From the NCBI RefSeq assembly GCF_900187385.1, contig NZ_FYEY01000001.1:3844001-3908000 (forward strand): 64,000 nt of DNA. Direction: 5' to 3'. How positions within the stretch are numbered: the stretch's first letter is position 1; each line of letters starts with the position of its first letter. Both the position numbers and the translations under genes were made by a program. The notes under the pieces were generated by a model, which was not told the DNA's origin, searched no databases, and worked only from the letters and a program-made list of their open reading frames with translations. Shown piece by piece: positions 13,779 through 36,806 of the stretch. The DNA is from Streptomyces sp. 2114.4 (lineage in GTDB: Bacteria; Actinomycetota; Actinomycetes; Streptomycetales; Streptomycetaceae).

Positions 13779-15695
13779 TCACTCGCCGTCGGCGTCGGCG
13801 AGCAGGCCGCGGGCGATCGCGTCGTTCTGGCGGAAGTAGACGGCGTTGGTGTGCGGGCGGGGGAACTGGGCCGGTCCGGCGATGGTCCGGTCGCGGTGCA
13901 CGGCGCCGGTCGAGTCGACGGGGTGCAGGTCAGCGCCGGACAGCCGCAGCATGCCGGCCGCGCCGTCCTCGGCTGGCTCCTGGACCAGTTCGCCGCGGGA
14001 AAGCAGGGCGCGCAGCAGAGGATCGGTCACACGGTCGGGCTCGGGCGCCGCCAGCCGGGCGTCGAGGAGGATGTCCGCCTCGTACACGGTGCCGGGGAGG
14101 GCGGGGCTGGTCGCGCGGAAGACGGCGCGGCGCGGGGCACTGCCCACGGCCCCTTCTCCGGGCACGGCCCGGTGTCCCTGCGCGCCCCCGTCTCCGGGCA
14201 CGGCCCCGTCGCCAGGCAGGGCCCCGTCGCCAGGCACGGTCGCCACCCGCATCCCGGGGCCCACGAATGTCAGCACGCCCGCCTCGGCCAGCGCCAGCAG
14301 TTGCTCGGCGCGCAGGGGCGGCGGGCCCGAGCTCAGGTAGGTGCCGAGCGCGAAGTGGCGTAGCGCGTCCGACAGTTGGGCGGCGGCCAGCTCGCCGGAG
14401 CGCCACAGCTCCTCGATGACCGCACCGGACCGCTGCAAGCCGTCGACCAGGGCGGCGGCGAGACCGCTCGCGGGGCCCGTGCGGCGGCGCAGTTCCTCGG
14501 CGAGCAGACCGTGCAGCCGGCGCTGGAGGTCGTTGGCGCCGGCGAACCGCAGCCCGGCCAGCGGATCGGCCAGCCGGTCCAGGTCGAGGCGGTCGGCGGG
14601 GTCGGGCACCGCCTCGCGGGCGAGTTTGGCCAGCCGGTCGGCGTCGGGGTGCAGCAGGGCGTACTGGGCGTCGAAATCCGGCCAGCTCATGCGCGTACGG
14701 GCGGGCTGCCCGGCGAAGAGCGCACGGTAGTGGCACCAGCCCAGTTCGGCCACCACCAGGGGCCACACGTCGCCGCCGAAGGAGGCACCGGGCCGGGACA
14801 GCACGGCCCGGCAGGCGTCGACGGTGGCGAAGCGCGGGGCGGCGGGGGCCACCGAAGGGGCGGCCGGTGGCGCATACGCCGGTTTGGGCGGCAGGGGGAC
14901 GCCACGCCGGGAGCCCGCGTACAGCCGGGGCTCGCGGCCGGACGGCAGATAGCGCAGCGGGCCGCCGGGGGCGGGGCGGACGAAGCGGCCGCCGCGGCCC
15001 TCCGTCAGCAGCGCCAGGCAGTCGATGAAGACCAGGCCCAGGCCGCGGACCAGGACCCGCGCGCCGGGCGGGACGGCCGCCAGCGCGTCCGGATCGGCGG
15101 GCCCGGGGCCGATCCGGGTCAGGCCGTCCGGTGCGGGGGCGGCGAGGGTGTCCGTATGGCCCTGGGCGAACACCACCCGGTCGGCGAGGAAGGGCGGTTG
15201 GCCGGAGTCGAGGATCACCTGCTGGCGGCCCCGCCCGCCCGGTACCGCCCCGGCGGGCGTGCGCCGCAGATCGACCACTCGCGCCCGGTGGACGAAGAGC
15301 CGCACCGAGGCGGGCCGCTCGCGGGTGACGGTCTCGAAGAAGTGCCGCAGATAGCGGCCCTGGTCGCGGCGGGCGGCGTAGGCGCCGTCGTGCAGCGGGG
15401 CGTCGAGCCAGCCGGCGGTGGTGGGGCCGGGGCGCGGCGGCCCTGCGCACGCCACGCTCTCGTCGGGGTACATCGTGACCTGCTCGGCGGCGGAGTTCAT
15501 CCACAGCAGACCGGACTGGTCGGTGCGCCAGGTACGGCCCGCGCCGGGTGGGTACGGGTCGACGATGTGCAGGTCCAGGGGCCGGTCGCCGTACAGGGCG
15601 GGGACGTTGGCGAGGATCCGCTCGACGATCGAGGCGCCGCGCGGGCCGCAGCCGATGAGGCACAGGGAGCGGGCCGGGCCCACCTGGTCGTTCAC
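13779..15695 (-). CDS. FAD/NAD(P)-binding oxidoreductase of the lanthipeptide operon
   Basis: A 638-residue flavoprotein-like enzyme of the FAD-NAD(P)-binding family (NAD_binding_9 type). The N-terminal dinucleotide motif is CLIGCGPRGASIVERIL, and a second nucleotide-binding-like region is ARVLVRGLGLVFIDCLALL. I prefer GTG 15695 with GGAGG upstream; a TTG five codons earlier is possible. A PGDGA-type repeat near residue 500 is a low-complexity insert. It is the last gene of the operon with LanKC and the precursors and the only visible flavoenzyme there, so it is a candidate for oxidative tailoring, for example of the C-terminal Cys. The reaction is inferred from context only. Confidence 0.8.
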   Translation of the reverse strand: MNDQVGPARSLCLIGCGPRGASIVERILANVPALYGDRPLDLHIVDPYPPGAGRTWRTDQSGLLWMNSAAEQVTMYPDESVACAGPPRPGPTTAGWLDAPLHDGAYAARRDQGRYLRHFFETVTRERPASVRLFVHRARVVDLRRTPAGAVPGGRGRQQVILDSGQPPFLADRVVFAQGHTDTLAAPAPDGLTRIGPGPADPDALAAVPPGARVLVRGLGLVFIDCLALLTEGRGGRFVRPAPGGPLRYLPSGREPRLYAGSRRGVPLPPKPAYAPPAAPSVAPAAPRFATVDACRAVLSRPGASFGGDVWPLVVAELGWCHYRALFAGQPARTRMSWPDFDAQYALLHPDADRLAKLAREAVPDPADRLDLDRLADPLAGLRFAGANDLQRRLHGLLAEELRRRTGPASGLAAALVDGLQRSGAVIEELWRSGELAAAQLSDALRHFALGTYLSSGPPPLRAEQLLALAEAGVLTFVGPGMRVATVPGDGALPGDGAVPGDGGAQGHRAVPGEGAVGSAPRRAVFRATSPALPGTVYEADILLDARLAAPEPDRVTDPLLRALLSRGELVQEPAEDGAAGMLRLSGADLHPVDSTGAVHRDRTIAGPAQFPRPHTNAVYFRQNDAIARGLLADADGE

Positions 15696-15780
15696 CTGGC
15701 CTCCGTCCAACGGCCTTGTTCAGGGGGAGTGGTGGTGCGGGAGCGCTGTGACACCCGGGATGACCGTGAAGTGCCGACGC

Positions 15781-15814
15781 CCGTCACGCACAGGGGCCCG
15801 TCACGCACAGGGGC
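15781..15814. repeat. Two tandem copies of a 17-bp unit
   Basis: CCCGTCACGCACAGGGG occurs twice back to back (15781-15797, 15798-15814), directly beside the hairpin that follows the precursor genes. Confidence 0.85.
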
Positions 15815-15850
15815 CCGGCGGCCCGTGCCGTAGCAGGGGGCCGCCGGGCG
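15814..15850 (-). terminator. 12-bp hairpin between the precursor genes and the FAD gene
   Basis: Arms 15814-15825 and 15839-15850 pair perfectly with a 13-base loop, five bases after the stop of the last precursor in the direction of transcription. Such partial terminators after RiPP precursor genes keep precursor mRNA in excess over downstream enzymes. That role is inferred here. Confidence 0.65.
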
Positions 15851-15855
15851 CCGTG

Positions 15856-15942
15856 TCAGCAGCCGCCGCTGATCGTGGAGCCGAGGGCCTGGGCGTCACG
15901 CTCGCCCGGCACCTCCAGGCCCTGAAGGTCCATGATGGTCAT
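15856..15942 (-). CDS. Class III lanthipeptide precursor, third copy in transcription order
   Basis: 28-codon gene, too short for ordinary gene callers. The ATG at 15942 has GGGAGG upstream. The leader contains IMDLQGLE, matching the L-x-x-L-Q-type recognition motif of class III leaders. The last eight residues are GSTISGGC: Ser22, Ser25 and Cys28 give the S-x2-S-x2-C spacing needed for a labionin or avionin ring. The protein is identical to the copies at 16033 and 16247; the DNA differs at synonymous positions (GCC for Ala, ACG for Thr). It is the substrate of the LanKC encoded upstream. Confidence 0.93.
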   Translation of the reverse strand: MTIMDLQGLEVPGERDAQALGSTISGGC

Positions 15943-16032
15943 CTCGACACCTCCCTTCCGTGGATCGGTGGACATGTGTACGGTGAGATACACGGCGCGT
16001 GGTGGAGTACCCACACCGTGTGGTCGGCTGTG

Positions 16033-16119
16033 TCAGCAGCCGCCGCTGATGGTGGAGCCGAGCGCCTGGGCGTCACGCTCGCCCGGCACCTCCAGGCCCT
16101 GAAGGTCCATGATGGTCAT
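16033..16119 (-). CDS. Class III lanthipeptide precursor, second copy
   Basis: 28-codon gene encoding the same peptide as its neighbours: leader with DLQGLE, then core GSTISGGC ending in Cys. The ATG is at 16119, preceded by GGGAGGAGG. Gaps of about 90-130 bases on either side contain no gene. Conservation of all 28 residues while wobble bases vary shows selection on the peptide, so this is a coding repeat and not a recent DNA duplication alone. Confidence 0.93.
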   Translation of the reverse strand: MTIMDLQGLEVPGERDAQALGSTISGGC

Positions 16120-16246
16120 CTACGACACCTCCTCCCGGGGACTCGTCGTGGTGCGGAAACACGGTGGTGACGTACCAGGTGCCGTTGCGGGACACCTGGA
16201 GCCGGAGGACCGTGCATGACAGGCGCACGGTCCACCCGGCGACGCG

Positions 16247-16333
16247 TCAGCAGCCGCCGCTGATGGTCGAGCCGAGCGCCTGGGCGTCACGCTCGCCCGG
16301 CACCTCCAGGCCCTGAAGGTCCATGATGGTCAT
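16247..16333 (-). CDS. Class III lanthipeptide precursor, first copy, overlapping lanKC
   Basis: 28-codon gene, first of the three in transcription order. Its ATG at 16333 lies inside the 3' end of the synthetase gene (stop at 16287), in another frame, with GGGAGG upstream; the overlap of 47 bases suggests translational coupling. The product is identical to the other two copies: leader DLQGLE, core GSTISGGC with Ser22/Ser25/Cys28. Expected modification is dehydration of the serines by LanKC, then cyclisation through the Cys. Confidence 0.93.
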   Translation of the reverse strand: MTIMDLQGLEVPGERDAQALGSTISGGC

Positions 16334-19055
16334 CTGACGACACCTCCCTTCCGCGGTGCGCAGTGCCCGCTGCCCCGGCCGGGGCGGTGGGGGTGGCGGC
16401 GCCTCGGGCGCCGCCGGCGCGTCCCGGTGCGGCCGGCGAAACGGCCGCCGCGGGGCGCGAGTCGGTGAGGAACGGGAGCAGCGGGGTGCCCCGTTCGGTG
16501 GCGGAGAGCGCCAGCAGGACGCCGGCACCGCCGTCGGCCAGCCCCATGGAGATCCGGGCGCGGCCGTCGCAGGGGAAGACCGTCGCTCCGTTCCACGTCA
16601 TGGCGTGCTGGCCGAGCCGGGTCAGATGACGGCGCAGATACCGGTCGACGGCTGGGCCGCTCAGCGCGGGGCCGTCCGGCCGCTCCCCGGTGTCCGGGGA
16701 GAGCGGCACCCGGTCGCGGAGCACCGCCAGGGTGGCGAGCAGGCCCGCGCGTCCGCCCAGCAGCCCCGACTCGATGACGAAGTCGGCGGCGCAGGCGCGC
16801 AGCAGGGCGGGCAGCGCCGCGCGGATCCGGTCGTCGTCGCGCACCCGGAGCAGTTCGGCCGCCACCAGGGCGATACCGGCGCTGCCGTTGTCCAGGTAGG
16901 GCAGGAGCCGGAAGCCCTCGTCCACCTGAAGGGTGTGCTGCGGGCCCGGTGCGCACCGGTCGAGGTCGCGGTGGACGGCGTGGACCGCCTCGTCCAGCAA
17001 CGCGGTGTCTCCGGTGGCGCGGTGGGCGGCCAGGAGGAAGAGCGCGGCGCCCGACCAGCCGTACATCAGGCCGGCGGCGTCCTTCGAGCCGCGCCGGCGG
17101 CGGCGCTCGACGGGTTCGGTGCGGGCGGCGGTCAGCCGCTCGGTGACGCGGTCGGCGAGGCAAAGGGCCTGCCGGCGCAGGTCGGCGCTGTCGAGCGCGT
17201 CGGCGAAGTGCAGCAGGTTCAGGCCGACGCCGGACAGACCGCGGTAGAGGCTGGGGCAGTGGCGTACGGAGAGCTTGTCCGCCGCCCGGTTCAGGGCCCG
17301 CAGGGCCGCCTCGTCGTCGCCCAGCTGCCGTAGGACGTAGGCCATTCCGTGCAGGCCGTCGTAGAAGCCGATCCGCTCGGCGGGGACCCGGTCGACGGCG
17401 GCGCGCAGCCAGGCCACGCCCTCCTCGTCGCGTTCCCCGAGGGCGGTGTGCCGGGCCCACAGGACGCCGGCCGCGCCGTGTCCGAAGCCCGCGCCGCCTT
17501 CGACGAACTGCTCGAAGCCGCCGGGGTGGAGCCGGTCGAGGCGGTGCGGGGTGGCGCTGTCGCGCAGCCCGCGGGCGAGGGAGACCAGCACCTCGGTGGG
17601 TGGGAAGGTGCCCGGCGAGGAGCGGAGCGTGGAGGTCGTGTTGTCGTTGGGGGCCAGCTGCGGTGCCAGCCGGGCCACCAGCGCGTCCGGCAGCCCGAAC
17701 CGCTCGGCCGCGGTGGCCAGCAGGGCGGGCGCCTTGTCCGGGGCGAGCCCGCCGAGGGCGGCCAGCGGCAGGAAGAGCCACAGTCCGATGGCGGCGAGCG
17801 CATAGTGGTCGCCGTCCGCACCGGTCGCGTCGGCGCGGTGGAAACCGGGGGCGCCGAGGCTGCTGGGGGTGGCCCGGTCGAGCTCGTCGGCCACCTCGAA
17901 GTCGATGAGGACCGGATCGTCGCCGGGCCTGATGATGAGGTTGCCCGGGTGCAGGTCGCCGATCCGGATGCCGCGGCCGTGCACCGCGGCGACCAGCGCC
18001 TCGATCCGGCCGAACAGGGCCAGCGCGCGGTCGCGGTACTGCGCGACGGCCTGCTCGTCGGGGTCGGGGACGGTCAGCGGGTGGTGCGCGGCGAGCCAGG
18101 TCTGGAAGTCCTGTCCCGCGATGTCCTCCAGCACCAGGAAGAGGTGGTCGCGGACCTGGAGGGTGCCGAAGGTGCGCGGGATCCCTGGCATCCCCGCCAG
18201 CCGCTCCAGCATCCGGTGCTCGTGGGCGAGCCGGCTGACCGCGTCGCGGCCGACGCCGTCGGTGCCGGAGTAGGGCCGGCCCTCCTTGAGGACGACGCCT
18301 GCCTCGCCCGCGCCGAGGGCGTCGGGGCGGGTCGGGACGGCGCGGTAGACACCGCCGCCGTTGGAGAACTGCAGCGCCCCGGTGATCCGGTAGGGGAAGT
18401 CGTCCAGAGCCTGCCGGGCGGCCAGCGAGTCCTTGAGGATGTCCGGCACCTCGACCCAGTCGGGGGTGTGGAAGACCGGGGTGCGGCGGTCCGGCTCGGG
18501 GGTGCCGTCGGGGCGGTGGAAGGCGGTGACCAGCTCGCCGTCGGTGTCCTCCATGTAGTGGGTACGGAAGCCGCCGTAACGTACATGGAGCGGGCCCTGC
18601 CGGATGCGCAGGTCGGTGAGGACGTACGGGCCGGGACGGCCGCCGACGAGGGCGTCGAGTCCTTCGAGGGTGCGGGCGAACTCGGCGTCGTCCACCGGGT
18701 AGACGGTCAGCAGCTTGCCGGCCGAGGAGCGCTGCGCGTACTTGCGGCTCAGGGCGCGCAGGACGTTGGCGCTCTTGAGGTACTTGAAGGCGATGCCGTG
18801 CCGGGTGCAGTAGCGGGCGACATCGACGAGGGTGCGGGGGGCGTCGTCGGGGGCCGCGCTGACGTGGATCTTCCAGCCCTGGTCCGGGAGGCGGTCCTCG
18901 GGCGGGCGGCAGAAGGTCCAGGCCTCGTTGTCGTCGCGCCGCCAGCCGTCGGGCAGCGGCGGGGCGGGGAAGCGGGTGGCCTCCAGGTCCCAGTTGCCGG
19001 GCCAGTCGAAGAAGGTGCGGTCGGCCAGGGCGAAGCTCTCGGCGCCGTCTCTCAT
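16287..19055 (-). CDS. Class III lanthipeptide synthetase LanKC
   Basis: Trifunctional lyase-kinase-cyclase of 922 residues that phosphorylates Ser/Thr in the precursor core, eliminates phosphate and closes thioether rings. Residues about 1-220 form the lyase part. The kinase follows, with FSNGGGVYRA (glycine loop), VVLKEGRPY (Lys), IGDLHPGNL (catalytic loop) and VLIDFEVA (DFG position). The C-terminal LanC-like domain has MYGWSGAALFL and GNGSAGIAL-type helices but no zinc-binding Cys-His-Gly set, as expected for class III. A 60-residue Ala/Pro/Gly tail overlaps the first precursor gene. Its start overlaps the GNAT stop (ATGA). Confidence 0.95.
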   Translation of the reverse strand: MRDGAESFALADRTFFDWPGNWDLEATRFPAPPLPDGWRRDDNEAWTFCRPPEDRLPDQGWKIHVSAAPDDAPRTLVDVARYCTRHGIAFKYLKSANVLRALSRKYAQRSSAGKLLTVYPVDDAEFARTLEGLDALVGGRPGPYVLTDLRIRQGPLHVRYGGFRTHYMEDTDGELVTAFHRPDGTPEPDRRTPVFHTPDWVEVPDILKDSLAARQALDDFPYRITGALQFSNGGGVYRAVPTRPDALGAGEAGVVLKEGRPYSGTDGVGRDAVSRLAHEHRMLERLAGMPGIPRTFGTLQVRDHLFLVLEDIAGQDFQTWLAAHHPLTVPDPDEQAVAQYRDRALALFGRIEALVAAVHGRGIRIGDLHPGNLIIRPGDDPVLIDFEVADELDRATPSSLGAPGFHRADATGADGDHYALAAIGLWLFLPLAALGGLAPDKAPALLATAAERFGLPDALVARLAPQLAPNDNTTSTLRSSPGTFPPTEVLVSLARGLRDSATPHRLDRLHPGGFEQFVEGGAGFGHGAAGVLWARHTALGERDEEGVAWLRAAVDRVPAERIGFYDGLHGMAYVLRQLGDDEAALRALNRAADKLSVRHCPSLYRGLSGVGLNLLHFADALDSADLRRQALCLADRVTERLTAARTEPVERRRRRGSKDAAGLMYGWSGAALFLLAAHRATGDTALLDEAVHAVHRDLDRCAPGPQHTLQVDEGFRLLPYLDNGSAGIALVAAELLRVRDDDRIRAALPALLRACAADFVIESGLLGGRAGLLATLAVLRDRVPLSPDTGERPDGPALSGPAVDRYLRRHLTRLGQHAMTWNGATVFPCDGRARISMGLADGGAGVLLALSATERGTPLLPFLTDSRPAAAVSPAAPGRAGGARGAATPTAPAGAAGTAHRGREVSSDDHHGPSGPGGAGRA

Positions 19056-19870
19056 GCGGCACCCCGGGCGGGGGCGGGCGCGCCGGCCTCGGCGGCAGGC
19101 GGTGCGGCGAGCGGATCGGGCTCGGCTGTCCCGGCGGCCGGCGGCCCGGGGTGGGTCGTCCCGGCGGGCGCGCCGGCCTCGGCGGCGAGCGGTGCCGCGG
19201 GCCGTACGGGTTCGGGGGCCTCGTCCAGGTAGGCGTCGAGGGCGGTGCGGCGGCCGGTCGCCAGGTGCTCGGCGAGGACGGCGCGGGCCTGGGTCTTGTC
19301 GTCGTCGGAGAGGAAGTCGGCGAGGCCGACGGCCAGCACGCGGTTGTCCTCACTGGGCTTGAGCGAGGCGTAGTGCTCGTCGCGCAGCAGGCCCCAGACG
19401 ATCGCGTCGTGGTACCGGCCGTCGAGGTAGCAGTGGTCGCGCAGGATGCCCTCGACCACGAAGGGGGTCTTGGTCATCAGCCGGATGACACCCTTGTTGT
19501 AGCCCGCGGTGGTGACCTGCACGCGGTGCGCGTTGAGCTGGTGGAAGAGGTAGTCGACGAGCAGGACGACGGCCTCCGCGCCGTAGCCGCGGCGCCACAG
19601 TTCGGGCGAGCCGATCGCGCCCCCGACGGTGAAGCCGCCGATCCGGCCGGACCGCTGATAGCTGACGGTACCGATGCGCTCGCCGTCCTTGCTGCGGATC
19701 ACCAGGTGGTGGACCCGGCCGGAGCGGTTGGCCTGCTCGACCTCGGCAGCGCCCAGCAGCTCCCAGTCACCGCTGAGCACGGCGGCCGGTGAGCCGGGCC
19801 GCAGCCAGGAGGCGATCGCTGCCCAGTCGTCGTCGCCGGGCCATTCCAAGGTCACCAGTCGTCCCTGCAC
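19052..19870 (-). CDS. GNAT acyltransferase, candidate peptide N-acylation enzyme
   Basis: A 272-residue GNAT protein. It starts at GTG 19870 with GGAGGG upstream. The fold is visible as LVIRSKDGERIGTVSYQ, then GFTVGGAIGSPELWRRGYGAEAVVLLVDYLF (R-R-G-Y-G acyl-CoA loop), then QVTTAGYNKGVIRLMTKTPF. The last 65 residues are Ala/Pro/Gly-rich low complexity with a repeated AAEAGAPA. In goadvionin-type lipopeptides a GNAT enzyme joins a polyketide acyl chain to the class III peptide; position between ketosynthase and LanKC makes this the likely role. Plain acetylation cannot be excluded. Confidence 0.85.
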   Translation of the reverse strand: MQGRLVTLEWPGDDDWAAIASWLRPGSPAAVLSGDWELLGAAEVEQANRSGRVHHLVIRSKDGERIGTVSYQRSGRIGGFTVGGAIGSPELWRRGYGAEAVVLLVDYLFHQLNAHRVQVTTAGYNKGVIRLMTKTPFVVEGILRDHCYLDGRYHDAIVWGLLRDEHYASLKPSEDNRVLAVGLADFLSDDDKTQARAVLAEHLATGRRTALDAYLDEAPEPVRPAAPLAAEAGAPAGTTHPGPPAAGTAEPDPLAAPPAAEAGAPAPARGAA

Positions 19871-19965
19871 GGTGCGTTCCCTCCTCAGCGGGTGGTGGCG
19901 GATCGTCAGCGGGTGGAGCGGGTCGTCGGGCACGTGGCGCCCGTCATCGGTGCGTGTGCGCGTCG

Positions 19966-21225
19966 TCAGCGGGTGTAGCGGGTCAGTACGAGGACGGCGT
20001 TGTGGCCGCCGAAGCCGAAGGAATTGCTGAGCACCACGTCGCCGTCCCAGTCGCGGGCGCCCTTGAGGACCAGATCGAGGTCTTCTTCCTCGGGGTGATC
20101 GCAGTTGCGGATCGGCGGGATCTTGCGGTCCCGGAGGGACAGCACCGCGGCGGCGGCCTCGGCTGCCCCGGAGGCGCCGAGCATGTGCCCGGTCATGCTC
20201 TTGACGGCGGTCACCGGCGTACGGCTGAGCTGGTCGGGGCCGAGCACCTGGCGCAGCGCCGACGCCTCGATGCGGTCGTTCAGGAGGGTGCCGGTGCCGT
20301 GCGCGCTGACCTGGCCGACGTCCTCGGGTTCCAGGCCCGCGTCGGCGAGCGCGCCGCGTATCGCGCGGACGGCTCCGGCGCCGGTCGGGTCGGGGGCGGT
20401 GGCGTGGTGGGCGTCGGTGGTGGCGGCGTAACCGGCCACCTCGGCAAGGATCTCCGCTCCGCGGCGTTCGGCGTGGCCGGCCTCCTCCAGCGTGAGGACG
20501 GTGGCGCCGACGGCCATCACGAACCCGTCGCGGTCCCGGTCGAAGGGCCGGCTGGCGCCTTCGGGGTCGTCGTTGCGGCGGGAGAGCGCCTGGGCGTTGG
20601 CGGTGCCGGCCAGGTCGACGGCCGTGAGGGCGTCGTCGGTGCCGCCGGCCAGGGCGATATCGGCCCGGCCGCTGCGGACCAGCTCGGCCGCCTCGCCCAG
20701 GGCCACCGCGCCGGTGGCACAGGCCGCGGAGACCGCGCAACTGGGGCCTTTGATGCCGTACTTGATCGACAGCAGGCTCGCCGGGTGGTCGATGGCGGTG
20801 AGGACCGAGTGGTACGGGGAGACCCGGCGCGGGCCCTGCACCGTCAGGACGTCGTACTGCTGCTGGATCGCGTGGGCGGCGCCGTAGCCGGAGCCGATCA
20901 CCGCGGCGAAGCGGTACGGGTCCCGGCCGGCGGACTCTTCGAGGCCGGCGGCCCGCATCGCCTGCCCCGCGGCGACCGCCGCGTACTGCGTGAAGCGGTC
21001 GCAGCGCCGGGCTTCCTGCGGGGTGAGGTAACCGGTCGTGTCAAAACCGGTGACATCGCCGCCGATACGGACCGGAAGGCGGGAAACGTCGAAGCGGGTC
21101 AGGGGGCGGACGCCGCTACGGCCGGCGAGAAGAGCGGCCCAGAAGTCCGCGGTGGTGTTTCCCACGGGGGACACCACGCCGCAGCCGGTGACGACCACGC
21201 GTCGCCGATCCGTGCGCAACTCCAT
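19966..21225 (-). CDS. Beta-ketoacyl-ACP synthase II (FabF-like)
   Basis: Condensing enzyme of 419 residues that elongates an acyl-ACP with malonyl-ACP. The active-site Cys is in CAVSAACATGAVALGEA, with the two His motifs VSAHGTGTLLND and KSMTGHMLGASG and the terminal NSFGFGGHN. The ATG at 21225 has GGAGG eight bases upstream. It heads the operon that continues with GNAT, LanKC and precursors, which ties fatty-acyl or polyketide synthesis to the peptide. The partner ACP is at 31128. Confidence 0.95.
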   Translation of the reverse strand: MELRTDRRRVVVTGCGVVSPVGNTTADFWAALLAGRSGVRPLTRFDVSRLPVRIGGDVTGFDTTGYLTPQEARRCDRFTQYAAVAAGQAMRAAGLEESAGRDPYRFAAVIGSGYGAAHAIQQQYDVLTVQGPRRVSPYHSVLTAIDHPASLLSIKYGIKGPSCAVSAACATGAVALGEAAELVRSGRADIALAGGTDDALTAVDLAGTANAQALSRRNDDPEGASRPFDRDRDGFVMAVGATVLTLEEAGHAERRGAEILAEVAGYAATTDAHHATAPDPTGAGAVRAIRGALADAGLEPEDVGQVSAHGTGTLLNDRIEASALRQVLGPDQLSRTPVTAVKSMTGHMLGASGAAEAAAAVLSLRDRKIPPIRNCDHPEEEDLDLVLKGARDWDGDVVLSNSFGFGGHNAVLVLTRYTR

Positions 21226-21747
21226 GAAACCCGCCTCCTGATTTCCCGCCCCCGTTGTCACGCTCGGGGCGTTCTCATGACCAGAAACATGACAGGTGAG
21301 TCATTGCGCTGTCAACGGCTCGCGGAGAAGTCAGTCAGTCGACGCCCCGTCTCCTGGCGCATCGACAGGCCCCGCACCAGCGGGAACACCCCCAAGGGGA
21401 TGACTGAGAGAGTCACTAAAATTGACTGTGGTGGGCAACGGATCGGGGTGCGACGAGGTCCCGGCGCCCGCGCGGCGGAGGCGGAGGACCCGGCCGGGAC
21501 AGGGGCACCCCCGGGGCCTTCGCCCCACAACTTCCGCCGCCCACCCCATGCCTGACGCCTTCTCCGGCGCCCCTCGGCACACCGTCCGAGGCATCCTCGC
21601 CTCCCCCGGCAGGGCCGCGGAGTACATAGAAAGTGACAGACAGCGGGACGGAAAGTGCCTACCTGCGGATGATCCCAATGAGCCGGCCGGGCGGGACGCT
21701 GGTCCGTACAACGTGCTCCGACACATCACAGGGAACGAGGGGAACTC
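21226..21747. promoter_or_regulatory. Divergent promoter region of the ketosynthase operon
   Basis: This 522-base stretch has no gene. For the minus strand, TTGACA at 21317-21312 could be a -35 element. GAGTCATTG at 21298-21306 lies next to CATGACA (21288-21294); the same pair spaced identically recurs at 31569-31587. TGACT-N5-AGTCA occurs at 21401-21415. These are candidate operators for the two XRE/TPR regulators. Confidence 0.5.
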
Positions 21748-21984: not shown

Positions 21985-23232
21985 TCAGTCCCGTTTTTCG
22001 AGGAGAGCCGTCAGCCGTTCCCGGGCCCGCTCGGCGTGCCGGTACGCCTGGGCCCCGCGGAACAGTTCCGCGGAATACCGGAAGTGCCCGGCCGCCCTTT
22101 CCCGGTCCCCCACCCGCTCACATGCCGCCGCGATCTCACCGAGCGCGGCGGCCTTCTCGTGGCTGCGGCCGGTATCGGGCAGCGCGGCCAGCCGCTCGCC
22201 CAGCGCGAAGAGGCGGTCGGTGTCACCGGCCGCCTCCGCACGGACCGCGTCAGCGGTCGTGAGCCAGAGCGGGAACTCCGGTTCCTGCGCCACCGAGGCC
22301 ACCACCAGTCCGCGCTCGACGATGCTGTGGGCCTGCTCCGTCTCGCCCCGGTGCAGCAACAGCAGGGCGTAGCGGCCGTTGATCTTCTCCCACAGCGGGA
22401 AGCCGGCGGCCGGGGTCACCCGGCGCGCACACTCCCCCAGCAGGGCGTCGGCGCGCTCCAGCTCGCCCCGGTCGCACAGATCGAGCGCCCGGTGCAGAGC
22501 GATGGCGGCGCGCGGCCCGGGGAGCACGCCGTCCGCCGGGGGCCGGGGCTGATCGCCGCCGGGAGCCCAGTCCGGGCAGCCGCTCCAATACGCGCAGCGG
22601 GTGAGCACTTCGAGGACCAGCAGCGAGTGGAACCCGGTCTCGGGGCGCCGGCCTTCGCATTCGAGGTAGCCGGTGAGCGCGTGGCGCAGGCCGTCCTGGA
22701 CCCGGCCGGCCGATTCCAGCAGATCGGCCAGCGCGATCAGAGCCCGCAGCCGGGGCTCGGCGTACGGCAGGGGGGCCGGCGCCTGGAGCATCCGCAGCAG
22801 GACCTCCGCGCCCTCGTCGGCGCGGCCGAGCGTGCCCAGTATTTCGGCAATGGCGAGCTGCGCCTCGGTAAATACGTCGTCCTGCCGGCCGGCCGGTTCC
22901 CTCTCGGCCAGTGCCCGGAATTCGGACAGCGCGCCCTCGGCGTCACCGCCGTCCCATTGCCTGCGCGCCGCCACCAATCGCCCGACGAGGTCGAGCCTGC
23001 GGACCCGGCCGGTGGTTTCGGTCTGCCCGGCGGTACCGGATATTTCCTCCACGCCCACGCCGAGGCGTTCCGCCAGGATCTTGAGTGCCCGGCCGCTGGG
23101 AATACGCTTCCCGCGTTCCACCAGCGAGATGTAGCTGGAGGACATGTCGGGCCCGGCAAGGTCGTGCTGTGTCATACCTGCGCCGACCCGGAGCTCTTTG
23201 ATTCTCCTCCCGGTGTCCGCCAGCTCAGGCAT
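21985..23232 (-). CDS. XRE/TPR transcriptional regulator 1 of the hybrid cluster
   Basis: A 415-residue regulator. The N-terminal helix-turn-helix is IKELRVGAGMTQHDLAG followed by MSSSYISLVERGKRIPSGRAL. The rest is TPR-like helical repeats (for example GRADEGAEVLLRMLQ, RAAGHFRYSAELFRGA), as in peptide- or autoinducer-binding regulators. The ATG at 23232 has GGAGG nine bases upstream. A paralogue with the same N-terminal pattern is at 28668. Both flank pathway genes and share candidate operator half-sites, so they are likely pathway-specific. Confidence 0.82.
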   Translation of the reverse strand: MPELADTGRRIKELRVGAGMTQHDLAGPDMSSSYISLVERGKRIPSGRALKILAERLGVGVEEISGTAGQTETTGRVRRLDLVGRLVAARRQWDGGDAEGALSEFRALAEREPAGRQDDVFTEAQLAIAEILGTLGRADEGAEVLLRMLQAPAPLPYAEPRLRALIALADLLESAGRVQDGLRHALTGYLECEGRRPETGFHSLLVLEVLTRCAYWSGCPDWAPGGDQPRPPADGVLPGPRAAIALHRALDLCDRGELERADALLGECARRVTPAAGFPLWEKINGRYALLLLHRGETEQAHSIVERGLVVASVAQEPEFPLWLTTADAVRAEAAGDTDRLFALGERLAALPDTGRSHEKAAALGEIAAACERVGDRERAAGHFRYSAELFRGAQAYRHAERARERLTALLEKRD

Positions 23233-23603: not shown

Positions 23604-24257
23604 ATGACGCAGCCCGCACGGCCGAATCTGCAGAAGGATCCGGCGCCCCCTTCCTCCTCGTCGCCCACGGTGCTGGCCTCCGACGCCGAGCGCGAGAACA
23701 TGGTCGAACGGCTCAGAGAGGCCGCCGTGGAAGGCCGGTTAACCCTGGAGGAGCTGGCCGAACGCTCCGAGGCGGCCTATCTGGCCCGTACCCGCACGGA
23801 GTTGATGACCGTCGGCGAGGATCTGCCGGAGGTGACACCCCCGCCGCCGCCGGGCCCGTCGGGAGCGCGCACCTTCCGCGCCACCTTCGGCGACCTCGTC
23901 CACCGCAGCCCCGTCCTGGAACACGGCATCGAGGCGACCGCGGTCTTCGGGGATCTGACCCTGGACCTGTGCGCCTCCCCGGCACCGTCCACCGGCGAAC
24001 TGACCATCGCGGCCCGTGCGATCGTCGGCGATGTGCATCTGCTGCTCCCGGAGGGCGTCCGGGTCGAGATGAACTGCAGCCAGGTCCTCGGTGATGTGCG
24101 CGATCTGACCCGGGCGCACGCCGGACCCGAAGCCATCACCCCGCTCGTACGCATCACCGGCGCCGCCGTCCTCGGCGACATCATCGTCGCCCACCCCGAC
24201 AGTGACCGCCGTACGTACTGGCAGAAGTGGCTCGACGAGCGCCGCACCCGGGCCTGA
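23604..24257 (+). CDS. DUF1707 SHOCT-like / LiaF-like protein
   Basis: 217-residue soluble protein. Residues about 25-75 are a DUF1707 domain (ASDAERENMVERLREAAVEGRLTLEELAERSEAAY in part), and the C-terminal part resembles the LiaF/cell-wall-active-antibiotic-response domain (ATAVFGDLTLDL, IVGDVHLLLPEGVRVEM, VLGDIIVAHP). Such proteins are linked to envelope stress sensing. The ATG at 23604 has GGAGG at a normal distance. It is 14 bases upstream of an ABC-2 permease and probably co-transcribed. Confidence 0.78.
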   Translation: MTQPARPNLQKDPAPPSSSSPTVLASDAERENMVERLREAAVEGRLTLEELAERSEAAYLARTRTELMTVGEDLPEVTPPPPPGPSGARTFRATFGDLVHRSPVLEHGIEATAVFGDLTLDLCASPAPSTGELTIAARAIVGDVHLLLPEGVRVEMNCSQVLGDVRDLTRAHAGPEAITPLVRITGAAVLGDIIVAHPDSDRRTYWQKWLDERRTRA

Positions 24258-24271
24258 CCCAAGGAGCAGCC

Positions 24272-25108
24272 GTGGCATCCGCTCAGACCCTGCCCCGCTC
24301 CGCACCGTCCGCCCCCGTGTCCGACGAGGGCCGGACCGGGCTGCGGGCGAGCGCACGGCACACCGGCGCGCTGGTCCGCCGCAACCTCCTCCAGATCCGG
24401 CAGAACCCGACGGCGATGACCGACGCGCTGCTGATGCCGGTCGTGCTGACCGTGCTGTTCGTCTTCGTCCTGGGCGGCGCGGTCGACCCGGGCGGCGACC
24501 GGGTGCGGTACACCGCCTTCCTGGTCCCGGGGCTGATGGTGATCCTCGGCATGACCATCGCCATGGCCGTGGGCGTCGGCGTCAACGACGACTTCCGTAC
24601 GGGCGTGATGGACCGCTTCCGCGCGATGCCCATCGGCCGCTCCTCGGTGCTGGTGGCCAAGGTGGTGGTGGAGACCGGCCGGATGCTGGTGGCCATCGCC
24701 GTGCTGCTGATCGTCGGCGCGGTGCTCGGCTTCGACGTCGCCGCACACTGGCCGGGCCTGCTGGCCGCCACCGCCCTGACCGCCGCGTTCGGCACCTCGC
24801 TGGTGTGGACCTTCATGTTGCTGGGCCTGACCCTGCGCACCGCGCAGGCCATCCAGGGGCTGTCGGTCCTGGTGCTGACCCCGCTGGAGTTCGGCTCCTC
24901 GATCTTCGTGCCGCCCTCGACCATGCCGGACTGGCTGTCCGCCTTCACCCGCTTCAACCCCCTGACCCATATGGCCGATGCGGCCCGCGGACTCGCCCTG
25001 GGCGAGGGCCCGGTGGCCGGCCCGGTGCTCTGGACGCTGGTGTGGTCGGTGGGTCTGACCGCCCTCACCGCCCCGGTGGCCGTCGCCAAGTTCCGCGCCA
25101 AGACCTGA
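24272..25108 (+). CDS. ABC-2 type (DrrB-like) permease without adjacent ATPase
   Basis: 278-residue membrane subunit of an ABC-2 exporter. GTG start with AAGGAG upstream. About six hydrophobic helices, with the family signature around RFRAMPIGRSSVLVAKVV and the closing RFNPLTHMADAARGLALGE. No ATP-binding subunit is next to it; the nearest ATPase (35858) already has its own permease. It sits inside the lipopeptide locus and could export the product with a remote or shared ATPase. That link is inferred. Confidence 0.85.
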   Translation: MASAQTLPRSAPSAPVSDEGRTGLRASARHTGALVRRNLLQIRQNPTAMTDALLMPVVLTVLFVFVLGGAVDPGGDRVRYTAFLVPGLMVILGMTIAMAVGVGVNDDFRTGVMDRFRAMPIGRSSVLVAKVVVETGRMLVAIAVLLIVGAVLGFDVAAHWPGLLAATALTAAFGTSLVWTFMLLGLTLRTAQAIQGLSVLVLTPLEFGSSIFVPPSTMPDWLSAFTRFNPLTHMADAARGLALGEGPVAGPVLWTLVWSVGLTALTAPVAVAKFRAKT

Positions 25109-25330: not shown

Positions 25331-27046
25331 CTAATGCTCCTCCCGCTCCGGGAAGTCCCCCGCGGAGGCCGTCATCCCCGGCGGGGTGTCGGCGAGCGCG
25401 GTCGCCACCTCCACCACGGCGGTGGTCCCGGCCGCGACCTGCCGCCAGGCGTCCGCCAGTGCCCCGGGCAGCTCCTCGGCGTCCGTCACCCGGCGGTAGC
25501 CCAGGCCGTAGGCGCGGGCCAGGCCCTCGGTGCCGGTCGGGCGTGGCCGGGTGAAGGCGAAGCGCGAGCCGTCGGGGGAGACCCGGTCGAGGTTGGACTG
25601 CAGCCAGCCGTAACCGCCGTTGTCGAGGACGACATAGAGCACGGCGACGCCCGTGTCGGCGACGGTGGGCAGCTCACCGCGGAAGAGGTTGAAGGCACCG
25701 TCGCCGACCACCGCGACCACCGGCCGCCCGGCCGGTTCGGCCAGCCGTACGCCCACTGCGGCGGCCGCGCCGAAGCCGAGCGGGGTCTGCTCGCTGGGCA
25801 CGACGGAACCGCCGCCGGACCCCAGCGACCAGTGCGGGAAGAAGTACGACCACATGTCCTGCAGGCCGTTCTCCTGAACCAGGACGCGGTCGGCGGGGAG
25901 CGCGCGGTCGAGGGCGGCCAGCACCCGGGCGACCGGCACGGCTCCCTCGGCCACCGTCTTGGCGGCCTCCTCGGCACGGTCCGCCGCGCGCCGCTCCAGC
26001 GCGGCCCGCACCGTACGGACCCGCGCCGGCCAGGCGCCCGTGGGCCGGTGACCGGACAGCAGCTCCGCCCAGCCGTCGACGATCCGTCCGGCGTCCCCGA
26101 GCACATGGTCGCCGGGCCGCTCCATGGCCAGATTCTCCTCGCCCAGCACCGCCTGGATCACCGGGAGTTGCGCCGTCTCCTGTGGCCAGCCGAAGGTGGC
26201 GGTCTCCTCCAGGCGGCTGCCCAGCGCGATGACCAGGTCCGCCTCGCGCCACAGCGCGTCCATCGGGGCAACCGTGTAGAGGCCGCTGACGCCGCAGTGG
26301 AGCGGGTGATCCTCGGCGACCGTGCCGCGGCCGGAGGCGGTGCTGAAGAGACCGGCGCCGAGCAGTTCGGCGAAGCGCTCGATCCGGCGGCCGGTGTTGC
26401 GGTGCCGGGCACCGCCGCCGACCAGCAGCAACGGCCGCTCGGCGGCGGCGATCCGGGCGGCGGTGGCGGCCAGCGCCGCCGGGTCGGGGGCGGGCCGCTG
26501 AGGCGTGGCCGGGCGCCACGGCCCGTTGCGGGTGACCGGTTCGGCGGCGATCTGCTCGGCGAGCTCCAGGTAGACCGGGCCCGGGGCGCCGTTGACGGCG
26601 AGCGCGGCGGCCTTCTCCAGGGCCCCGGGCAGCCGCTCGGGGTGGTCGACGCGGGTCGCCCACTTCACGTACGGGCGGATCGCGGTCAGCTGGTCCAGTT
26701 CCTGGAAGGCGCCGGTACCGAGCCGGTCGAGCCGGGTGCCGTCGGCGATGAGGATCAGCGGCACGGCGGCGGAGCGCGCCTCCAGGACGCCGGTGAGCGC
26801 GTTGGTCAGCGCCGGGCCCTTGCCGATCACGCAGACGCCGGGGCGGCCGGCGGCGAGCGCGTAACCGGTCGCCATGAACAGGGCGTTGCGCTGATCGCGG
26901 CAGAGCACCACCTCGGCGGTGGACCGCTCCAGCTCGCCGAGCAGCGCCATGTCGTCGCCGGGCAGCCCGAACACCACCTCGGTGCCCAGGTGGTGGAGGT
27001 GGTCGGCGATCGCGGCCCAGGCGGTGGGGTGGACATGGGGTGTCAT
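25331..27046 (-). CDS. Thiamine-diphosphate-dependent decarboxylase/synthase-like enzyme
   Basis: 571-residue ThDP enzyme of the acetolactate synthase / 2-oxo-acid decarboxylase superfamily: Pyr domain, central domain (PLLLVGGGARHR) and PP domain with GDGAFNLFRGELPT and then LDNGGYGWLQ, the ThDP/Mg motif. At the position of the cofactor-activating Glu (usually R-H-E-Q-G-A) the sequence reads RDQRNALFMA, apparently with Gln, which is unusual. ATG overlaps the aldehyde dehydrogenase stop (ATGA). Together they could turn a 2-oxo acid into an aldehyde and then an acyl starter. That is inference. Confidence 0.82.
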   Translation of the reverse strand: MTPHVHPTAWAAIADHLHHLGTEVVFGLPGDDMALLGELERSTAEVVLCRDQRNALFMATGYALAAGRPGVCVIGKGPALTNALTGVLEARSAAVPLILIADGTRLDRLGTGAFQELDQLTAIRPYVKWATRVDHPERLPGALEKAAALAVNGAPGPVYLELAEQIAAEPVTRNGPWRPATPQRPAPDPAALAATAARIAAAERPLLLVGGGARHRNTGRRIERFAELLGAGLFSTASGRGTVAEDHPLHCGVSGLYTVAPMDALWREADLVIALGSRLEETATFGWPQETAQLPVIQAVLGEENLAMERPGDHVLGDAGRIVDGWAELLSGHRPTGAWPARVRTVRAALERRAADRAEEAAKTVAEGAVPVARVLAALDRALPADRVLVQENGLQDMWSYFFPHWSLGSGGGSVVPSEQTPLGFGAAAAVGVRLAEPAGRPVVAVVGDGAFNLFRGELPTVADTGVAVLYVVLDNGGYGWLQSNLDRVSPDGSRFAFTRPRPTGTEGLARAYGLGYRRVTDAEELPGALADAWRQVAAGTTAVVEVATALADTPPGMTASAGDFPEREEH

Positions 27047-28287
27047 CGGCGGGCTCCCGGGCGGTGGGTGGCGACGGCCTGGGAGATCAGGACGGGCTCG
27101 GCCCGTACGTCCTCGCCGTCGGCGATGTAGTTGGCCATCCGGCCGTAGCCGCCGAACGGGGCGTTGCCGTTGTCGATGGAGAGCAGGGTGGTGTCGAGGG
27201 TGACGGTGGTGCGTCGGCGCAGCGCCTCGACGAGGCCGGGGGCGTGGCCGTAGACGCTGGAGCCCAGGGCGCGTTCGGTGAACATGCCGGTGGTGAGGGT
27301 CCCGGCCAGCGCGTCCTGGTCGCGGTAGCCGGCGATGTTGAAGATCGGGGCGAAGAACTCCGGTACGTGGGTGCGCGGGGTGACCTCCGGGCCGACGACG
27401 ACGGTGGGATCGAGCCGCCGGCCGCGGAAGTCGACATGCCCGCCGTGCACGATGCCGCCGTGGTTGCGGGCGAGGAACTGTGCGCCGTCCTCCAGCGCGC
27501 TCTCGTAGAAGATCGGCCCGAAGTCGGCGTCCGGGTCGGAGTAGGGGCCGTAGCGCAGCCCCTTCAGCTCGCTGACCAGAGTGTCGACGAACGGGTCGAG
27601 CAGCGACTCGTGGACGCAGAACAGGTCGGGGCCCAGGCAGTCCTGACCAGTGTTGAGGACCCGGATGGCGATCGCGTCGCGGACCGCCTGCCCGACATCG
27701 GCGCCGGGGGCGACGACGAACGGGTTGACGCCGGAGCCGAGGAAGAGGAAGAGCTGCCCGGGCGAGAGCCGGGCGCGGATCTGTTCGGCGTTGGCGTAGG
27801 CGCCGGTGAAGACGACGACCTCGGCCGGGCGGACGTGCTCCTGCAGGAACTCCCGCTGGCTGGCGCCGCTGAGGGTGATCGGCAGGCCGTGCCGCTCGGC
27901 GAGCAGGGTGTGCAGCCGGCGCATCTGGTCCTTGACCCGGCTGGAGGGGCGGAAGACCAGCCGGTCGGTGTAGAGCGCCGGGACCAGGAGGTAGAGGGCG
28001 TAGGAGTAGAGGAGGACGTTCGACGGCATGAAGGCGGCCAGCCGGGGGACCCGGCCGGGCCGGTGGGCGGCCACCTCGTCCAGGGCCCCGTCGAGGGTGG
28101 CGATGGTCGACTCGATCTCGTAGCGCGCGGCGCGGTGGGTGGAGATCTCGCACAGCAGCTCGTGCACGGTACCGGCGTCGTTCACCAGGAAGTCCCGGAC
28201 CCGGTGCACGGCCGCCGCACGCCTGCTGTCGGTGCTGGTCTCCTCCGGCTCGGCGGCCACGGTCGGCCATGCGGGAGCGGAGCTCAT
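27043..28287 (-). CDS. Aldehyde dehydrogenase family protein, possibly acylating
   Basis: 414-residue ALDH-superfamily enzyme. The catalytic Cys is in VLNTGQDCLGPD. C-terminal motifs include FFAPIFNI and NGNAPFGGYGRM. Where NAD-dependent hydrolytic ALDHs have L-E-L-G-G, this one has LFLGSGVNPF, so the general-base Glu is missing, as in CoA-acylating aldehyde dehydrogenases. The ATG at 28287 has GGAGGG upstream. It is first in a two-gene operon with the ThDP enzyme. An acyl-thioester product for chain initiation is plausible but unproven. Confidence 0.82.
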   Translation of the reverse strand: MSSAPAWPTVAAEPEETSTDSRRAAAVHRVRDFLVNDAGTVHELLCEISTHRAARYEIESTIATLDGALDEVAAHRPGRVPRLAAFMPSNVLLYSYALYLLVPALYTDRLVFRPSSRVKDQMRRLHTLLAERHGLPITLSGASQREFLQEHVRPAEVVVFTGAYANAEQIRARLSPGQLFLFLGSGVNPFVVAPGADVGQAVRDAIAIRVLNTGQDCLGPDLFCVHESLLDPFVDTLVSELKGLRYGPYSDPDADFGPIFYESALEDGAQFLARNHGGIVHGGHVDFRGRRLDPTVVVGPEVTPRTHVPEFFAPIFNIAGYRDQDALAGTLTTGMFTERALGSSVYGHAPGLVEALRRRTTVTLDTTLLSIDNGNAPFGGYGRMANYIADGEDVRAEPVLISQAVATHRPGARR

Positions 28288-28667
28288 ATGTCCCTCCTCG
28301 GGGCGTAGTCCATGGAGGGTCAGCGTCAGCCACCTGTCATTTATTGTCAAGTAAAGTCATTGCACTCGACTGCATCATATGACAAGCGACCGCCCTTCCG
28401 GACGGTCCGTCAGCCCCCTCACCCCCCTGCTCACCCTGGCGCGAACCTCTCGTGGCCCGCTCATCTGTCGTAACGCTCCCACCGGGGCGCAGGAATACCT
28501 GGCTCCGGACGTGACAAGAAAATGACTCCCGACCGGGAGTCAGGTCGTTCACAAACGCCCCTGAGCAGGCCCGCGACGAGTAGACTCGCGGTCATTGCGT
28601 TCTCTCTGTCCGCAGCGTCCGCGCCCCGTCACCGTCCGTCCGCCCCACTCAACTGCGAGCGATTTTC
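28288..28667. promoter_or_regulatory. Divergent promoter region between the ALDH operon and regulator 2
   Basis: 380 bases without a gene. It holds AAGTCATTG at 28354-28362, TTGACA on the minus strand (28350-28345) and a long inverted repeat near 28523-28542. Repeated half-sites match those upstream of the ketosynthase and ACP genes. Confidence 0.5.
28523..28542. promoter_or_regulatory. Inverted repeat TGACTCCC-N4-GGGAGTCA, candidate operator
   Basis: Eight-base perfect arms (28523-28530 and 28535-28542) separated by GACC. The outer TGACT/AGTCA half-sites are the same as those in the other cluster promoters, spaced 10 bases rather than 5. It lies about 125 bases upstream of regulator 2. Confidence 0.5.
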
Positions 28668-29942
28668 TTGACGATTGAGCAGCCTGCTTTCGGTAAGCGA
28701 GTGCGGGAGGTCCGGCGCTCTCAGGGTCTGTCCCAGGGGGACCTCGCCGGGGACGATCTCTCCCCCAGCTATGTCTCGCTGGTCGAGAACGGCCGCAGAG
28801 TCCCCGGCGCCAAGATCGCCCGGACCCTCGCCCAGCGCCTCGGCACCACGATCGAGGCACTGTGCGCCACCGACGAGCCCGGCGACCGGCTGACCCGACG
28901 CCTCGGCCTGGTCGGCCAGTTGGTGGCCGCCCGGTCCAGCCAGCTGGCCGGTGACTGGCCGGCCGCCCGGCGGCAGCTGGAGTCCGTGGTGGAGCAGGCC
29001 GGCACCGGTCACGACGAGGTGCGCTGGGAGGCGCGCTGGGAACTGGCCACCGTCCTCGGGCGGCTCGACGACCCGGCCCGCCACGAAGCGGCGCTGCGCC
29101 ACCTCCTCGACGACCCGCTCACCCGCTCCGCGCCGGTGCTGCACGCCCGCGTCGCGGTCGAACTCGCCCAGCTGCTGCGCGCCGTGGGCCGTCTCTCGGA
29201 CGGGGTCCGCTTCGCCGAGGAGGCCGTCCGGGTCACCGGCGAGCTGGAGCCCGGCCGCCCGGAGCGGGCACAGGCCCGGATGGCGCTGCTGTCGCTGTCC
29301 GTCGACAGCGGAGAGTGGAGCCGCGCCACGCAGCTCGGGGCGGAGCTGCAGGCGGAGGTCGCCCCCCTCCCCGCCGGTGAACTGCGGGCGGGCGCGCTGT
29401 GGGCGGTCGCCGGTGCGCAGTATCTCGGCGGGCACCCGGAGCGGGCGCTGGAGCTGCTGGCCGAGGCGGAGCAGCTGCTCGCCGCGACGGACGGGGTGCG
29501 GCTGCGGCTGCAACTGGCCCGCGCCCGTACGCTGCTGGCCCTCGCCGCGGCCCCGGCGGACGAGGCCGACGCCCTGCTGGAGCGGGCCCGGCAGGCTACC
29601 GCGCTCATCGACACCCCGGCCGCCAGGACCTGGCTCGCCGTCCTGGAGACGGCCGCGGCGCTGCGACACCACCGGGCGGGGGCGGCCGCGGAGCACGCCG
29701 CGGCGATCGACCCCGACGCCGCCGGGCTGACGCCCCTCGACCGTGCCCGGGCGCTGCTCCACCTCGCCCGCGCCCATCGCGCGGACGGCGGCGCGGAGGC
29801 CGCGGAGGCCGACTTCAAGGAGGCCGCCGAGGGCTATGAGCACGCCGGCGCCTTCCGGCTCGCGCTGGAGAGCTGGCGCGAGCTGAGCGCCGGCGGCCGC
29901 ACGGACGAGGGGCCGGATCCCCATGCGGTGCTCATGCCGTAG
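28668..29942 (+). CDS. XRE/TPR transcriptional regulator 2 of the hybrid cluster
   Basis: 424-residue regulator with N-terminal helix-turn-helix VREVRRSQGLSQGDLAGDDL followed by SPSYVSLVENGRRVPGAKIA, very close in pattern to regulator 1 at 21985. The remainder is Ala/Leu-rich TPR-like helices. I use the TTG at 28668 (MTIEQPAFG); its ribosome site is weak, so the start is less sure. It diverges from the ALDH operon. Likely binds the TGACT/AGTCA sites nearby. Confidence 0.78.
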   Translation: MTIEQPAFGKRVREVRRSQGLSQGDLAGDDLSPSYVSLVENGRRVPGAKIARTLAQRLGTTIEALCATDEPGDRLTRRLGLVGQLVAARSSQLAGDWPAARRQLESVVEQAGTGHDEVRWEARWELATVLGRLDDPARHEAALRHLLDDPLTRSAPVLHARVAVELAQLLRAVGRLSDGVRFAEEAVRVTGELEPGRPERAQARMALLSLSVDSGEWSRATQLGAELQAEVAPLPAGELRAGALWAVAGAQYLGGHPERALELLAEAEQLLAATDGVRLRLQLARARTLLALAAAPADEADALLERARQATALIDTPAARTWLAVLETAAALRHHRAGAAAEHAAAIDPDAAGLTPLDRARALLHLARAHRADGGAEAAEADFKEAAEGYEHAGAFRLALESWRELSAGGRTDEGPDPHAVLMP

Positions 29943-36796: not shown

Positions 36797-36806
36797 GGTG
36801 CCCGCC

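What the first reader, a model, noticed from the sequence alone, without database searches (positions are those of the whole stretch)
15856..16333. Three identical 28-residue precursor genes in tandem
Copies at 15856, 16033 and 16247 differ only at synonymous sites, each with its own strong ribosome site. The peptide is under purifying selection and is produced in triplicate, probably to feed the enzymes in excess. Intergenic spacers differ, which argues against a very recent triplication. The copies are shorter than typical class III precursors.
Basis: seen in the sequence. Interest (0 to 1): 0.8.

Follow-up and report, generated by a model that had tools for sequence, protein, structure and literature searches.

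The report
Triplicate precursors of a lipidated lanthipeptide
A soil bacterium (Streptomyces) carries three back-to-back genes for the same 28-residue peptide, which neighbouring genes are predicted to fold into a sulfur-bridged ring and join to a custom fatty acid; the same three-gene array is kept in 13 related genomes, and such clusters lack the decarboxylase used by the known antibiotics of this type.

Summary
Three 28-codon genes on the minus strand (16333-16247, 16119-16033, 15942-15856) encode the identical peptide MTIMDLQGLEVPGERDAQALGSTISGGC and differ at three synonymous sites. They directly follow a class III lanthionine synthetase. All 13 genomes of this clade that I compared carry exactly three tandem copies, and the spacers are conserved position by position, with hairpins that show compensatory changes. 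The triplication is therefore old. Full identity is not the rule: 9 of 13 genomes encode two slightly different cores (GST[IVL]S[GT]GC), so 'excess supply' is only part of the story.

The locus also encodes a GNAT acyltransferase, FabF-type ketosynthase, ACP, enoyl reductase, dehydratase, AMP-ligase, ThDP enzyme and an N-hydroxylase-like flavoenzyme. The core is S2-x2-S5-x2-C8, the lipolanthine (avionin) spacing. The most likely product is a fatty-acid/lanthipeptide hybrid. Unlike lipolanthines, no cysteine decarboxylase (PF02441) was found near the cluster here or in relatives, and some relatives' precursors continue past the Cys, so a labionin or lanthionine ring that keeps its carboxylate is more likely than avionin. 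Related clusters with 1-3 precursors occur in several actinobacterial families. A published mining pipeline discarded ORFs under 30 aa, which would hide most of this family.

The parts
16247..16333 (-). precursor gene A1 (28 aa; predicted leader 1-20, core GSTISGGC)
   Evidence: orthologues in 12 other genomes
16033..16119 (-). precursor gene A2, identical peptide
15856..15942 (-). precursor gene A3, identical peptide
   Evidence: ORF 15856-16014 is the longer GTG-start version
16200..16240 (-). spacer hairpin I between A1 and A2 (GCCGGGTGGACCGTGC...GCACGGTCCTCCGGC), approximate ends
   Evidence: 3 pairs with double changes across 10 sequences; absent in L014/L015
16175..16199 (-). spacer hairpin II CCAGGTGTCCCGCAACGGCACCTGG, 51-60 nt before A2 start in all 13 genomes
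   Evidence: single occurrence in own genome; compensatory CAGGTACC/GGTACCTG in L014
15974..16021 (-). hairpin between A2 and A3 (sequence differs by lineage), approximate ends
15808..15852 (-). strong stem-loop just after A3, probable terminator, approximate ends
   Evidence: 5 pairs with double changes across 12 sequences
16287..19055 (-). LanKC class III lanthionine synthetase; its frame runs 47 bp into A1 here, but stops (TAA) directly before the A1 ATG in most relatives
19052..19870 (-). GNAT acyltransferase, proposed to put the acyl chain on the peptide N-terminus
19966..21261 (-). FabF-type beta-ketoacyl-ACP synthase
13779..15710 (-). FAD/NAD(P) enzyme, homologue of L-aspartate N-hydroxylase (PDB 8cp2) with the Asp-site motif not conserved
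21985..23232 (-). HTH regulator, conserved in synteny
24227..25108 (+). ABC-2 transporter permease, conserved in synteny
25331..27097 (-). ThDP-dependent enzyme, possible starter-unit supply
27043..28350 (-). aldehyde-dehydrogenase-family protein
28668..29942 (+). HTH regulator
29968..30801 (-). probable phosphopantetheinyl transferase (weak Pfam match, 24.0 bits against a cut-off of 25)
31128..31391 (-). acyl carrier protein (read from sequence)
   Evidence: about 70% identical homologues beside LanKC in L047, L048, L070
31729..32499 (+). FabI-like enoyl-ACP reductase
32506..33012 (+). dehydratase (FAS1_DH type)
33009..34550 (+). AMP-dependent acyl ligase (read from sequence; homologues in related clusters)
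35795..37607 (+). ABC transporter ATPase (35795-36796) and permease (36798-37607), possible export/immunity
   Evidence: conservation beyond the 10-kb flanks not tested

Best explanation
The three genes are tandem structural genes of a lipidated class III lanthipeptide. Leader residues 1-20 (IMDLQGLE motif) bind LanKC, which phosphorylates and eliminates Ser22 and Ser25 of GSTISGGC and adds Cys28 to make one labionin (or lanthionine) ring of S-x2-S-x2-C spacing. After the leader is removed by a protease outside the cluster, the GNAT transfers an ACP-bound acyl chain to the new N-terminus. The chain is made by the cluster's own type II fatty-acid genes (AMP-ligase, KS, DH, ER, ACP, PPTase). With no cysteine decarboxylase, the C-terminal carboxylate is kept. 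Tandem copies with hairpin-bounded spacers raise or balance precursor supply, and in most relatives also give two core variants. Shown: anatomy, conservation, gene content, absence of PF02441 near the cluster. Inferred: ring type, cleavage site, acylation, chain structure, dosage role.
For: LanKC equivalog directly upstream; A1 start abuts the LanKC stop in most relatives. Three copies in 13 genomes, ring residues invariant. GNAT and KS are syntenic with LanKC in nine relatives, ThDP and ALDH in eight (the ninth is cut by its flank), and GNAT, KS, ENR, ligase, ThDP and ALDH recur around 37-48% identical LanKCs with similar short precursors in other actinobacteria. The core aligns without gaps with the eight-residue lipolanthine nocaviogua, ring residues at 2, 5 and 8 (PMC10435860). 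GNATs acylate known class III lipopeptides (PMC13060382). No PF02441 gene was found near the cluster in G000, nine named relatives or eleven further genomes; precursors of G479 and G929 continue past the Cys (CGQ, CQ, CG, CGG).
Against: No product, transcript or enzyme activity is shown. The PF02441 search had no positive control with MicD itself, and PF02441 proteins elsewhere (Dfp-sized and UbiX-like) exist in every genome and could act in trans. No clear ketoreductase or leader protease was found in the cluster. GNAT function rests on homology and gene neighbourhood; GdvG itself could not be compared. Some fatty-acid genes lie 10-18 kb from the array and their linkage was checked only in the distant relatives.
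Confidence: 0.7

Rival explanations
1. A true lipolanthine: the C-terminal Cys is decarboxylated by a PF02441 enzyme encoded elsewhere, giving avionin as in microvionin.
For: Core spacing identical to avionin lipolanthines; the genome has four PF02441 proteins outside the cluster.
Against: No cluster-linked decarboxylase in any of about 20 genomes; the most widely shared PF02441 members look like Dfp and a UbiX-like protein (not verified); related precursors end in CQ, CGQ, CG or CGG.
Confidence: 0.2
2. A non-lipidated class III lanthipeptide (SapB-like); the fatty-acid genes belong to a neighbouring, unrelated pathway.
For: The acyl genes are split over several operons and spread over about 18 kb; LanKC alone would suffice for a ring.
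Against: GNAT overlaps LanKC by 4 bp and KS lies just upstream; GNAT, KS, ENR and ligase recur beside LanKC in distant genomes in different order; a PKS+GNAT+LanKC version exists.
Confidence: 0.08
3. On copy number: the three copies serve diversification rather than dosage; tandem copies evolve two core variants and this window is a homogenised state.
For: 9 of 13 genomes encode two cores; within the core only positions 24 and 26 vary.
Against: 4 of 13 genomes, this one included, encode a single core in all copies; variants are conservative (I/V/L, G/T).
Confidence: 0.3
4. On copy number: the arrays persist mainly as recombination by-products with little functional role.
For: Copies are more alike within a genome (4.3 differences) than between genomes at the same position (6.5), as gene conversion gives.
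Against: Number and order are fixed at three in 13 genomes, with conserved, compensating hairpins between copies.
Confidence: 0.08

Closest known systems
Lipolanthines (microvionin, nocavionin, goadvionins, nocaviogua)
   Same: Class III LanKC, N-acylation with a PK/FA chain (GNAT), eight-residue core with ring residues at 2, 5 and 8
   Different: No linked cysteine decarboxylase; relatives' precursors may extend past Cys; type II FAS-like genes here; three precursor genes
Lipoavitides (RiPP/fatty-acid hybrids with non-modular FAS)
   Same: RiPP acylated at the N-terminus with a chain from discrete fatty-acid enzymes (cited in PMC13060382; detail from memory)
   Different: From memory these carry a decarboxylated Avi-type C-terminus and use a KSIII; here a FabF-type KS, an AMP-ligase and no decarboxylase
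SapB/labyrinthopeptin-type class III lanthipeptides
   Same: LanKC and LQ-type leader motif
   Different: Usually two ring motifs in about 40-aa precursors, no GNAT or fatty-acid genes
Multi-copy class III precursors in Bacillus (13 identical in B. cereus, PMC7268733; ThurA1-A7, PMC10604976)
   Same: Tandem identical or near-identical LanA genes with one LanKC
   Different: Firmicutes; in the Thur cluster a methyltransferase rather than acylation

Membership tests
Class III lanthipeptide precursor/synthetase pair | LanKC with lyase, kinase and cyclase domains | tested here: met
   NF038151 896 bits (cut-off 575); RamC_N, LANC_like, weak Pkinase
Class III lanthipeptide precursor/synthetase pair | LxLQ-type leader motif and Ser/Cys core | tested here: met
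   IMDLQGLE leader, SxxSxxC core in all copies
Lipolanthine | Core with Ser2-x2-Ser5-x2-Cys8 ring residues | tested here: met
   GSTISGGC against nocaviogua residues 1-8
Lipolanthine | GNAT plus fatty-acid or polyketide genes | tested here: met
Lipolanthine | Flavin-dependent Cys decarboxylase (LanD/MicD) acting with LanKC, giving avionin | tested here: not met
   No PF02441 near the cluster in the window genome or relatives; no MicD positive control was available, and action in trans is not excluded
Lipolanthine | Avionin residue and N-acyl chain in the product | not testable with these tools
   needs chemistry
L-aspartate N-hydroxylase (CreE/FzmM) for 13779-15710 | Substrate-site residues R409/R412/N413/R416 of 8cp2 | tested here: not met
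   Overall homology E 2e-71, but the LRDLRNELR segment is not conserved in the phmmer alignment

The most novel reading that the evidence does not exclude
A decarboxylase-free branch of lipolanthine-like lipopeptides, spread over several actinobacterial families: 27-32-residue precursors in one to three tandem copies, one S-x2-S-x2-C ring kept as carboxylated labionin, N-acylated with a chain from dedicated fatty-acid (or PKS) genes, possibly with an arginine-derived starter and an N-oxidised group.
Probability: 0.5. Interest if true: 0.65.

Novelty: new variant of a known kind. Interest (0 to 1): 0.52.

Why it matters
Lipolanthines are few and some are strong anti-staphylococcal agents, and what decides between lanthionine, labionin and avionin is described as not understood (PMC9415263). 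A natural lineage with the avionin spacing but no decarboxylase is a direct comparison case. The family also shows a likely blind spot: a survey of over 100,000 genomes discarded precursor ORFs under 30 aa (PMC7268733). The conserved three-gene array with hairpin spacers is a tractable system for asking why RiPP clusters repeat their precursor genes.

Tried and rejected
Rfam scan of 15600-16500: nothing near a gathering score. Promoter/terminator consensus scan: no promoter in 15700-21700, and the A3 stem-loop is not listed, presumably for lack of a T-run. The L-aspartate N-hydroxylase assignment of the FAD/NAD(P) enzyme was rejected because the substrate-site motif is not conserved. An arginine-derived (guanidino) acyl starter is only a lead: the ThDP enzyme matches many ThDP families, including 5-guanidino-2-oxopentanoate decarboxylase, all far below cut-offs, and an arginase-family gene sits in the related L048 cluster. 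LanKC tree: the three-copy clade is solid (100/100), but monophyly of all GNAT-linked LanKCs is weak (73/61), so one origin is not claimed. Two GNAT-like hits (L090, L091) have no LanKC nearby and were set aside. The Wiebach 2020 and lipoavitide papers are not in the library, so GdvG, MicA and MicD could not be compared. Alignment A3 had a wrong coordinate for the window row and was not used.

Full report
OBSERVATION. The three ORFs exist exactly as stated, on the minus strand: 16333-16247 (A1), 16119-16033 (A2) and 15942-15856 (A3). All translate to MTIMDLQGLEVPGERDAQALGSTISGGC; the only nucleotide differences are synonymous (codons 19, 22, 23). No other copy at this level exists in the 8.07-Mb genome; a weak hit 180 kb away belongs to a different class III cluster. 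Each copy has a strong Shine-Dalgarno sequence.

CONSERVATION OF THE ARRAY. A genome-contig scan with LanKC returned nine Streptomyces loci at 77-88% identity (and one distant one); each of the nine carries exactly three tandem copies after LanKC. Whole-genome searches added more, giving 13 non-redundant genomes with this one. In 39 copies change is confined to positions 2, 3, 9, 13, 16, 24 and 26; all other positions, including S22, T23, S25, G27 and C28, are invariant. Pooled dN/dS is 0.22 within and 0.34 between genomes. Nine of 13 genomes encode two core variants. Copies are more alike within a genome (4.3 differences) than at the same position between genomes (6.5), and the L014/L015 pair has changed residues 9 and 13 in all three copies, which points to gene conversion on top of selection. 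Leu6 CTT (1.8% of Leu codons in window genes) and Arg15 CGT (5.9% of Arg codons) are nearly or fully frozen, so there is some nucleotide-level constraint too.

SPACERS. The spacers are not arbitrary. After A1 all genomes keep a 25-nt hairpin CCAGGTGTCCCGCAACGGCACCTGG, 51-60 nt before A2, found once in the genome; a second hairpin precedes it in 11 of 13, with double changes at three pairs. The A2-A3 spacer holds a lineage-specific hairpin in most genomes. A3 is followed by a strong stem-loop with double changes at five of 18 pairs. These pair counts come from few, related sequences. In most relatives the LanKC stop codon TAA directly precedes the A1 ATG; here and in L022 that TAA is lost, and here the LanKC frame runs 47 bp into A1. 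The picture is a LanKC-A1-A2-A3 operon with hairpin-bounded precursor genes ending in a probable terminator; transcription data are lacking.

NEIGHBOURHOOD. Upstream are LanKC, a GNAT overlapping it by 4 bp, a FabF-type ketosynthase and an HTH regulator; further out are ThDP, ALDH-family, HTH, PPTase-like, ACP, FabI-like, dehydratase and AMP-ligase genes and ABC transporters. Downstream is a flavoenzyme related to L-aspartate N-hydroxylase (PDB 8cp2, E 2e-71) whose substrate-site segment is not conserved. The order ALDH-ThDP-ABC-HTH-KS-GNAT-KC-A-A-A-flavoenzyme is kept in the relatives as far as their contigs or flanks reach.

WIDER FAMILY. Profiles of the precursor found short precursors beside LanKC elsewhere: two copies ..GSTISNSC (G370), one copy ..SSTVSSHC (G045, G057) and ..ASTASNHC (G051), three copies ..STVSNGC / STVSNACGQ / STVSNNCQ (G479), two in G824, three ..LSGISSDC / LSSVSVDC in G745. 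Between them these loci share GNAT, KS, ENR, AMP-ligase, ThDP, ALDH, ACP and in part the flavoenzyme; not every locus shows every gene in the 20 kb read. A GNAT profile found a PKS-based version in G929, with two precursors ending ..CG and ..CGG.

WHAT IT IS. The core GSTISGGC matches the eight-residue nocaviogua core in the place of its three ring residues (PMC10435860). GNAT acylation of class III peptides is reported for microvionin-type compounds, goadvionins and lipoavitides (PMC13060382). Avionin is the decarboxylated analogue of labionin, and its formation in microvionin involves MicKC with MicD (PMC10373908, PMC9415263). No PF02441 gene was found near the cluster in the window genome or in about 20 relatives, and several related precursors run past the Cys. 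I therefore do not file it as a lipolanthine but say that it works like one, probably with a labionin/lanthionine ring that keeps its carboxylate. Ring type, acylation and chain are inferences.

WHY THREE COPIES. Tandem identical LanA genes are known in Bacillus class III clusters (13 in B. cereus, PMC7268733; ThurA1-A7, PMC10604976), so repetition alone is not new. What is notable is the fixed number, the hairpin spacers and the small core variation. Dosage, with limited diversification, is the best reading; a deletion series would test it.

LIMITS. No expression or chemistry. No MicD/GdvG sequences for direct comparison. Linkage of the outer fatty-acid genes was not checked in all close relatives. 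The literature library covers open-licence papers only, so an earlier description of this branch may exist.

Noticed in passing
window 5713-6123 (+) and 6356-6853 (-): Two small apparently secreted proteins with Asn/Ser/Gly-rich repeats (NSGN...), encoded in opposite orientation.
   Followed up: no
window 11869-13682: An NsdA-family regulator and a second GNAT sit between the two-component system and the flavoenzyme; in several relatives the two are adjacent, so this looks like an insertion.
   Followed up: partly
L045 (G000:C1:4036001-4046000): A second class III cluster of the same genome with two longer precursors (MNPMVLDLQGLELPEGDEMAPMSGVSNQCSNSSYIFC; MALLDLQGLELPDTSAQPLGSSNSATCSSHSWVFC).
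   Followed up: partly
window 15856-16333 and orthologues: Rare leader codons CTT (Leu6) and CGT (Arg15) are frozen in 37/39 and 39/39 copies across 13 genomes.
   Followed up: partly
L048 3186-18000: Related one-copy cluster also carries an arginase-family gene, a P450, a di-iron (RNR/AurF-like) protein and a glycosyltransferase, hinting at an arginine-derived acyl starter and further tailoring.
   Followed up: partly
L092 4259-19468: Type I PKS + GNAT + LanKC + AMP-binding/condensation protein with two precursors ending SxxSxxC-G and SxxSxxC-GG; the genome's only PF02441 hit is a Dfp-sized protein 1.5 Mb away.
   Followed up: partly
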